Virus record (IMG/VR): IMGVR_UViG_3300010885_013720
Coordinates: 1 to 47,445 of that record
Length of the DNA: 47,445 bases
DNA from: a virus
Strand: one strand, 5' to 3'
Shown one piece after another: positions 40,229 to 40,582 of this stretch (position 1 is the first letter of the stretch; each line of letters opens with the position of its first letter). Made by a program: the position numbers and the translations under genes. The notes beneath the pieces were generated by a model. The model did not search any database and was not told where the DNA came from. It saw nothing but the letters and a program-made list of their open reading frames with translations.

Positions 40229-40429
40229 AGATTGGGTACAGCAAAAAGAATATAATTGGTTCGATTCCAATGCTCCCCACCATGAATACACTACGACCCA
40301 CAGTGCGGATTATATGGGCTGTGAATGTGAGAATAAACCGTAATAATATCACCAGCATAGTGTATTCTTGATGGGGAGTAGGCAAGGTGCCCTTTCATTA
40401 GAAATAATGACTGATTCCCCAACCAATCT
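40229..40429 (+). ncRNA. array RNA unit 6, permuted tRNA-like module
   Basis: Helix AGATTGG/CCAATCT. In order inside: T-arm ATTGG-TTCGATT-CCAAT (40255-40271), acceptor-like GCTCCCC then ACCA, a 10-bp hairpin stem GAATACACTA/TAGTGTATTC (40284-40293 with 40358-40367), GGGGAGT (40373-40379, pairs with GCTCCCC), and a D-arm-like GGC-AAGGT-GCC. This is a tRNA acceptor/T/D half in permuted order with a capped acceptor. Confidence 0.68.
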
Positions 40430-40430
40430 G

Positions 40431-40459
40431 TTGACAAATGTTTTGAATTAGTATAATAT
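40431..40459 (+). promoter_or_regulatory. sigma70-like promoter inside the RNA array
   Basis: TTGACA at 40431-40436, a 17-base spacer and TAATAT at 40454-40459 (TATAAT at 40452 with a 15-base spacer also possible). The expected RNA start coincides with the 5' edge of unit 7. Confidence 0.75.
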
Positions 40460-40466
40460 CAGTTTT

Positions 40467-40582
40467 AGGTTGTGTTCCGCATACAAATGGATCAAACGTT
40501 AGGTCACAGGTTCGAACCCTGTCGTGTCGCCAAAAGCGGATCGTAGCTCAGTTGGAAGAGCAAACGCCAAAAAGTACAACCT
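40467..40582 (+). ncRNA. array RNA unit 7, permuted tRNA-like module
   Basis: Helix AGGTTGT/ACAACCT. Inside: T-arm ACAGG-TTCGAAC-CCTGT (40506-40522), an acceptor-like hairpin CGTGTCGC-CAAAA-GCGGATCG (6 of 8 paired), then T44-A45 (positions 8 and 9 of a tRNA) and a D-arm GCTC-AGTTGGAA-GAGC (40546-40561) with the conserved GG. This is the clearest match to the YrlA-type permuted tRNA module. Confidence 0.7.

What the first reader, a model, noticed from the sequence alone, without database searches (positions are those of the whole stretch)
40229..40582. Two array units hold circularly permuted tRNA acceptor/T/D halves
In units 6 and 7 the T-arm comes first, then the 3' acceptor-like strand, a cap, the 5' acceptor-like strand and a D-arm or D-arm-like hairpin. 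In unit 7 the T and A after the acceptor correspond to U8 and A9, and the D-loop has GG. In unit 6 GCTCCCC and GGGGAGT pair with a 10-bp capped hairpin between. The anticodon stem is replaced by the unit's closing helix. This is the arrangement reported for YrlA Y RNAs.
Basis: partly seen in the sequence, partly recalled or inferred. Interest (0 to 1): 0.85.

Follow-up and report, generated by a model that had tools for sequence, protein, structure and literature searches.

The report
Phage Ro60 RNAs carrying tRNA parts
Next to its gene for a Ro60-type RNA-binding ring protein, this virus of bacteria carries a row of small RNA genes that share one handle and each display a different piece of a transfer RNA (some with the pieces in swapped order, as in bacterial YrlA Y RNA), and the same RNA family sits beside the Ro60 gene in most related phages examined.

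Summary
Unit 6 (40229-40429) and unit 7 (40467-40582) read T-arm, 3' acceptor strand, cap, 5' acceptor strand, D-arm. They belong to a nine-unit array (39743-40807) 277 nt upstream of a phage Ro60 gene (41084-42523; fold match to Ro60, Z 17). Every unit has a 7-8 bp closing helix, an N[U/A]CNGCA[A/U] motif and usually a CUGU 3' edge. Among relatives 102/115 motif sites find their own helix partner (3 expected with swapped arms), and 138/138 units run sense to Ro60. Blind to the acceptor, 24 non-redundant permuted modules keep all seven acceptor pairs at 18-22/24 with 4-6 pair types each, so these are not decayed neighbouring tRNAs. Short units carry anticodon-arm mimics; others hold a whole tRNA body. 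Best reading: phage Y RNAs whose handle binds Ro60 and whose insert displays a tRNA part, as tether or decoy. Binding is not shown. The window's unit 7 is the weakest example (acceptor 5/7; permuted fold not its MFE). The handle also matches the Dictyostelium Class I RNA model (E 7e-7), a class so far reported only from dictyostelids.

The parts
39743..39800 (+). Unit 1: closing helix TGGATCA/TGATCCA, motif GTTCAGCAA, hairpin TCTTT-AGCAAAA-AAAGA
   Evidence: read; promoter-like TTGACA-17-TAGAGT at 39699-39727
39817..39952 (+). Unit 2: closing helix AGATTGAC/GTCAGTCT, motif TTACAGCAT, long multi-hairpin insert
39963..40051 (+). Unit 3: permuted tRNA module; T-arm 39989-40005, acceptor ACCAGCG 40006-40012 / CGCTAGT 40018-40024 with cap GTTCA, D-arm 40027-40040
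   Evidence: homologue L001 4702; MFE shows all helices, z -2.25
40062..40151 (+). Unit 4: tRNA parts in normal order, anticodon arm 40098-40114 (loop CTTTTGC) and T-arm 40121-40137; closing helix in place of the acceptor stem
   Evidence: Dicty_Class_I model hit 40063-40152, 22.7 bits
40161..40218 (+). Unit 5: short unit with anticodon-arm mimic TTGA-CTTGTAA-TCAA (40185-40199, UGU)
   Evidence: read; unit (36.3 bits with model R1); hairpin in the MFE
40229..40429 (+). Unit 6: permuted module; T-arm 40255-40271, acceptor 40272-40278 / 40373-40379, long capped hairpin between, D-like hairpin 40381-40391
   Evidence: homologues L104 1040-1227, L134 10326-10538; z -4.0
40467..40582 (+). Unit 7: permuted YrlA-like module; T-arm 40506-40522, acceptor 40523-40529 / 40537-40543, UA 40544-40545, D-arm 40546-40561, CGTT/AACG helix 40497-40500 / 40563-40566
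   Evidence: promoter-like TTGACA-17-TAATAT 40431-40459 ends 7 nt before the unit
40673..40732 (+). Unit 8: short unit with anticodon-arm-like hairpin CTTTT-ATTTGGG-AAAAG (40704-40720)
   Evidence: (37.1 bits); the MFE of the whole unit prefers another hairpin
40742..40807 (+). Unit 9: short unit with anticodon-arm mimic TCGA-CTTGAAA-TCGA (40777-40791, UGA)
   Evidence: (35.6 bits)
41084..42523 (+). Phage Ro60 (DUF2828/DUF7788, PHROG 850 RNA-binding protein), 479 aa
   Evidence: predicted fold matches Ro60 structures 9kop Z 17.0, 9l5y Z 15.6, 1yvp Z 13.6, 2nvo Z 12.1

Best explanation
The array encodes a set of phage Y-type RNAs for the Ro60 ring protein encoded directly downstream. Each unit has one constant part, the handle: a 7-8 bp closing helix, the loop motif N[U/A]CNGCA[A/U] next to its 5' strand, and usually a CUGU 3' edge. 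The handle binds Ro60 (inferred). The variable insert displays one part of a tRNA. In units 3, 6 and 7 it is the elbow and acceptor helix in permuted order, so that the unit's ends lie where the anticodon arm would be and the acceptor end is closed by a loop, as in YrlA (the layout is shown; the three-dimensional fold is inferred). In unit 4 it is a tRNA body without acceptor stem; in units 5, 8 and 9 an anticodon arm. The most likely role is that Ro60 carries these tRNA look-alikes as adaptors or baits for proteins that recognise tRNA parts: either to tether a nuclease such as PNPase, as in the Deinococcus Rsr-Y RNA-PNPase machine, or to occupy host tRNA-directed enzymes such as anticodon nucleases during infection. 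I put the Y-type Ro60 partner at about 0.8, and tether or decoy as the purpose at about 0.4 together.
For: Handle: 115 non-redundant 5'-motif sites sense against 3 antisense; 102 have the exact partner of their own arm against 3.1 with swapped arms (max 11 of 200 trials); 48 different arms. In viral contigs 113/115 pattern sites have their own partner; in bacterial and archaeal genomes 3/94, with hit numbers near chance. Ro60 link: 138/138 units sense with Ro60; 58/66 Ro60 loci with at least 1 kb upstream have a unit within 2 kb, median 73 nt from the gene; starting from units alone, 52/113 loci hold Ro60 and 15/20 larger contigs (18 without it in the stretch held) carry it, while 681 of 50,697 phage records carry the gene. 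Protein fold. Permuted modules. Anticodon-arm mimics: 61 of 82 short units have a >=4-bp hairpin with a 7-nt loop against 17 in shuffles (max 28), U33 48/61, A37 48/61, 5-bp stems 39/61. Cultured phages: 28 sense against 3 antisense candidates around Ro60 in 13 phages. Precedent: YrlA binds Rsr by its basal stem and PNPase by its tRNA-like domain (PMC8394870); YrlA as competitive inhibitor of an anticodon nuclease was proposed in PMC7790460.
Against: No binding, transcript or phenotype data exist for this phage. Matches to the YrlA and Dicty Class I models score below their gathering cut-offs. Unit 7 alone does not favour the permuted fold. Some distant Ro60 phages (e.g. Serratia BF, Ochrobactrum OC) gave no convincing unit near Ro60, and 5 of 20 larger unit-bearing contigs gave no Ro60 (contigs may be incomplete). 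The anticodons of short units match tRNAs of the same locus only slightly more often than expected (34/50 against 29.5, z 1.7), which neither supports nor excludes decoys.
Confidence: 0.72

Rival explanations
1. The units are remnants of tRNA genes, decayed or rearranged, in a tRNA-rich region, without a function of their own.
For: Units lie among tRNA genes, 61 of 138 starting within 15 nt of a tRNA or unit 3' end. The YrlA model also scores abutting tRNA genes (28435-28553, 25.5 bits). The window's unit 7 has an imperfect acceptor.
Against: Conserved handle with compensating arms; acceptor pairing across unrelated sequences in permuted order; CCA missing in 26/28 modules but present in 452/529 abutting tRNAs; anticodon arms no nearer to tRNAs of the same locus than to random tRNAs (10.2 against 9.9 of 17 identical).
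Confidence: 0.05
2. Decoys proper: the RNAs are mainly substrates or inhibitors that soak up host tRNA-cleaving enzymes; Ro60 only stabilises them.
For: Anticodon-arm mimics with many anticodons (UGA, UUU, UGU, UCU, GUA and others); phages answer anticodon nucleases with tRNAs (PMC10264068, PMC11555353); the YrlA inhibitor idea in PMC7790460.
Against: No nuclease target is known for this host; mimics are spread over anticodons without clear link to the phage's own tRNAs; permuted units have no anticodon arm at all.
Confidence: 0.2
3. The units guide or gate Ro60 in quality control and repair of the phage's own tRNAs, each unit recruiting the enzyme that normally acts on the displayed tRNA part.
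For: Units and Ro60 lie in tRNA clusters (median 10 tRNAs per locus). An RNA ligase lies directly upstream of Ro60 in Serratia phage BF and a tRNA-splicing ligase 1.3 kb downstream in Listeria phage LMSP-25. YrlA is modified by DusA and TruB (PMC8394870).
Against: No repair enzyme was seen among the genes tested beside Ro60 in the window; no direct data.
Confidence: 0.2
4. The handle is not a Ro60 site but a processing or mobility signal (like an integron cassette end) that moves tRNA pieces about.
For: Constant ends with changeable inserts; different cargo at corresponding places in relatives.
Against: No recombinase seen beside the array; the arm sequence varies between neighbours while pairing is kept, which fits an RNA helix and not a DNA recombination site; constant sense orientation to Ro60.
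Confidence: 0.07

Closest known systems
YrlA (bacterial Y RNA-like A, Rfam RF02553)
   Same: T-arm, capped acceptor, D-arm in permuted order above a closing stem; next to a Ro60/Rsr gene; full-length model matches in relatives (39.3 bits, E 8.7e-8).
   Different: Below the gathering score; different closing part (phage N[U/A]CNGCA[A/U] against consensus AUGCUU); several units per locus; most units carry other tRNA parts.
YrlA-type match in mycobacteriophage LeBron (HM152763; Y RNAs of mycobacteriophages are attributed to Chen et al. 2014 by PMC12282133)
   Same: Lies just after the Ro-like gene, 39.8 bits to YrlA, acceptor CGCCACC/GGTGGTG 7/7, and has the same handle (stem TGGACTC, motif CAGCAA); two short units flank it.
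   Different: Three units instead of nine. I could not read Chen et al. 2014 (not held), so whether the short neighbours were noticed there is unknown to me.
Dictyostelium Class I RNA (Rfam RF01414; PMC7919456)
   Same: Short closing stem conserved as structure, motif CCUUACAGCAA beside the 5' strand, variable rest, 3' CUGU; best phage hits 36.5 and 35.7 bits, E 7e-7 and 1e-6, 1.2e-5 against all of Rfam.
   Different: Eukaryotic genes with a DUSE promoter; cut-off of 41.5 bits not reached; reported only from dictyostelids; its known binder is an RRM protein.
Listeria phage CKA15 abundant non-coding RNAs (PMC12282133)
   Same: The authors suggest Y RNAs upstream of an Rsr homologue that is also found in virions; the related phage LMSP-25 has three units 75-340 nt before Ro60.
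   Different: No RNA family or structure was defined; the most abundant region (26,236-26,727) probably lies further upstream than these units.

Membership tests
YrlA Y RNA (RF02553) | T-arm, capped acceptor helix and D-arm in permuted order | tested here: met
   units 3, 6, 7 and 24 non-redundant modules chosen blind to the acceptor
YrlA Y RNA (RF02553) | Rfam gathering score of 69 bits | tested here: not met
   23 bits in unit 7, best relative 46 bits
YrlA Y RNA (RF02553) | closing stem with the YrlA consensus around it (AUGCUU ... AaAcUuG) | tested here: not met
   helix aligned, but a different motif
YrlA Y RNA (RF02553) | encoded beside a Ro60/Rsr gene | tested here: met
YrlA Y RNA (RF02553) | binds Rsr; D and pseudouridine made by DusA and TruB | not testable with these tools
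   needs biochemistry
Ro60/Rsr (for ORF 41084-42523) | helical repeat ring plus vWA domain with the Ro60 fold | tested here: met
   Ro60 structures fill the first ten ranks, Z 17.0 to 11.1; next vWA proteins Z 10.3 and lower; model of medium confidence, pLDDT 67
Dictyostelium Class I RNA (RF01414) | short closing stem, 11-nt motif next to the 5' strand, CUGU end | tested here: met
   most motif positions and the CUGU end agree; T at motif position 3 only in the TTACAGCA-type units
Dictyostelium Class I RNA (RF01414) | gathering score of 41.5 bits | tested here: not met
   best 36.5 bits
functional tRNA genes | complete cloverleaf in normal order | tested here: not met
   no ARAGORN or Rfam tRNA inside the window's units; five relatives hold one

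The most novel reading that the evidence does not exclude
Ro60 phages carry a modular kit of Y-type RNAs: one handle that loads onto Ro60 and exchangeable cargo that copies single tRNA parts (anticodon arm, permuted elbow plus acceptor, whole body), used to engage tRNA-directed host enzymes. Dictyostelium Class I RNAs, so far without known relatives, would be eukaryotic members of the same handle family and hence candidate partners of a Ro60/DUF2828 protein.
Probability: 0.3. Interest if true: 0.92.

Novelty: new variant of a known kind. Interest (0 to 1): 0.8.

Why it matters
Ro60 genes are found in hundreds of phage records (681 here), usually named only RNA-binding or DUF2828 protein. This gives them candidate RNA partners that can be seen in sequence, extends Y RNAs from single YrlA-type molecules to arrays, and shows that tRNA mimicry there is modular. 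It makes two open questions testable: what phage Ro60 does in infection, and what the orphan Dictyostelium Class I RNAs bind.

Tried and rejected
First motif pattern mis-spaced, gave chance numbers only. BLASTN of the array against phages found only tRNA-Ser. Single-sequence search of solved structures missed Ro60; the fold search found it. YrlA score alone as proof: rejected, because abutting tRNA genes score alike. Decayed local tRNAs: rejected. Link between anticodon mimics and the phage's own anticodons: first looked strong (35 against 21), but with size-matched loci z is 1.7, so not claimed. Bacterial occurrence: pattern hits in genome contigs are near chance. Model R1 missed units in mycobacterial, Listeria, Salmonella and Campylobacter phages; a relaxed motif found candidates. 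VIA-align rows below the Ro60 group are generic vWA matches. Mapping the CKA15 RNA peaks onto the units was not possible.

Full report
What is there. The window is a virus record of 47,445 bases with T4-type genes (DNA polymerase, UvsX-like recombinase, DnaB-like helicase and others) and 17 tRNA genes. Between the tRNA-Ser gene at 39403 and a 479-aa gene at 41084 lies a mostly non-coding stretch that holds nine units on the + strand. Each has a 7-8 bp closing helix, the motif N[U/A]CNGCA[A/U] beside its 5' strand, and GU after the helix, so that the 3' edge mostly reads CUGUU.

The finding. Unit 6 and unit 7 read as described: T-arm, 3' acceptor strand, cap, 5' acceptor strand, D-arm. Unit 3 has the same layout. 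Units 3 and 6 fold so by energy alone (z -2.25 and -4.0). Unit 7 does not: its acceptor has 5 of 7 pairs. Its counterparts in relatives are clean, for example CAGGAGC/GCTTCTG (L001), TAGGAGC/GCTTCTA (L007), CTTAAGA/TCTTAAG (L067). Unit 6 has homologues with the same acceptor and a different cap hairpin (L104, L134).

Is it more than chance or decay? I collected T-arm plus UA-D-arm pairs without looking at the acceptor. Inside units 22 of 28 distinct cases have at least 6 of 7 acceptor pairs, against 2.0 (max 6) after swapping strands; the cap is mostly 3-9 nt; CCA follows in 2 of 28. Abutting tRNA genes outside units: 26 of 529, and CCA in 452 of 529. Some of those 26 may be units my strict finder missed. 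In 24 non-redundant modules each acceptor pair is standard in 18-22 cases and shows 4-6 pair types.

The handle is real. Across Ro60 loci 115 motif sites lie sense and 3 antisense; 102 of 115 find the exact partner of their own arm, against 3.1 with swapped arms. A pattern scan of viral contigs gave 115 testable sites, 113 with own partner; in 98 hits from bacterial and archaeal genomes, about as many as chance gives, 3 of 94 have one.

The partner gene. The 479-aa protein has DUF2828/DUF7788 domains and is PHROG 850 'RNA-binding protein'. Its predicted structure (pLDDT 67) matches Ro60: 9kop Z 17.0, Thermus phage phiLo Ro60 9l5y Z 15.6, Xenopus Ro60 1yvp Z 13.6 (species from my own knowledge), Deinococcus Rsr 2nvo Z 12.1; the next unrelated vWA proteins have Z of 10.3 or less. 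All 138 units in Ro60 loci are sense to it; 58 of 66 loci with enough upstream sequence have a unit within 2 kb, median 73 nt away. Of 20 larger contigs found by the unit pattern, 18 of them without Ro60 in the stretch held, 15 carry the gene.

Cargo classes. Among 193 unit clusters 74 have a T-arm pattern and 34 were scored as permuted (this count used at least 6 of 7 acceptor pairs as a criterion). ARAGORN finds a whole tRNA inside five units. Of 82 short units 61 have a hairpin with a 7-nt loop, against 17 in shuffles, with U33 and A37 in 48 of 61 each: anticodon-arm mimics. Their 17-mers are no closer to tRNAs of the same locus than to random ones.

Breadth. With a relaxed motif, candidates lie near Ro60 in phages of Synechococcus, Mycobacterium (LeBron), Listeria, Salmonella (Felixounavirus), Aeromonas, Klebsiella and Campylobacter; 28 sense and 3 antisense in 13 phages. 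The candidates in KVP40 and phiM12 are single and far from Ro60. In LeBron the YrlA match (39.8 bits) shares the handle. In Listeria phage CKA15, non-coding RNAs within 2 kb upstream of the Rsr homologue are among the most abundant phage transcripts, and the Rsr homologue is found in virions (PMC12282133); whether these RNAs are the units is not settled.

Dictyostelium. The Class I RNA model hits phage units at up to 36.5 bits, E 7e-7 for the contig, and 1.2e-5 against all Rfam families in a 151-nt stretch. PMC7919456 describes stem, motif and CUGU end, and found the class only in dictyostelids. Shared origin or convergence cannot be told here.

How it works. Shown: layout, covariation, link to Ro60. 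Inferred: binding of the handle by Ro60, display of the tRNA part, and the purpose. The tether reading follows the Rsr-YrlA-PNPase machine (PMC8394870); the decoy reading follows the suggestion in PMC7790460 and the known contest between phages and tRNA-cleaving defences (PMC10264068, PMC11555353; only the starts of their abstracts were seen).

Verdict. Observation confirmed and extended; interpretation supported. A new variant of the Y RNA kind: handle distinct from YrlA, arrayed, with modular tRNA cargo.

Noticed in passing
39699-39727, 40431-40459, 40597-40625: Sense sigma-70-like promoter matches before units 1, 7 and 8; the one at 40431-40459 would start transcription at about the first base of unit 7. 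Nine matches in the region against 4.9 expected.
   Followed up: partly
39817-39952; L009 3393-3561, L073 4757-4925, L117 9457: Another cargo class: long units (about 110-180 nt) with a conserved GAGTTTCGA...CTC hairpin and AAAAAGTAGA before the 3' strand, often the last unit before Ro60; unit 2 of the window looks related.
   Followed up: no
42756-42830: A tRNA found by the Rfam model (38.9 bits) but not by ARAGORN.
   Followed up: no
L089 (Listeria phage LMSP-25) 1916-2570: About 650 nt without annotated genes upstream of Ro60, possibly the counterpart of the most highly transcribed non-coding region of phage CKA15.
   Followed up: partly
window 44284-45450, 42935-43747, 37148-38041, 38225-39397: Tryptophan halogenase-like, glycosyltransferase 17-like, epimerase-like and FAD oxidoreductase (DAO) genes around the array.
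   Followed up: no
L104 1040-1227, L134 10326-10538, window 40283-40372: The cap of unit 6-type modules is a long hairpin whose lower stem is kept while its top differs between phages; it follows an ACCA that looks like a tRNA 3' end.
   Followed up: partly
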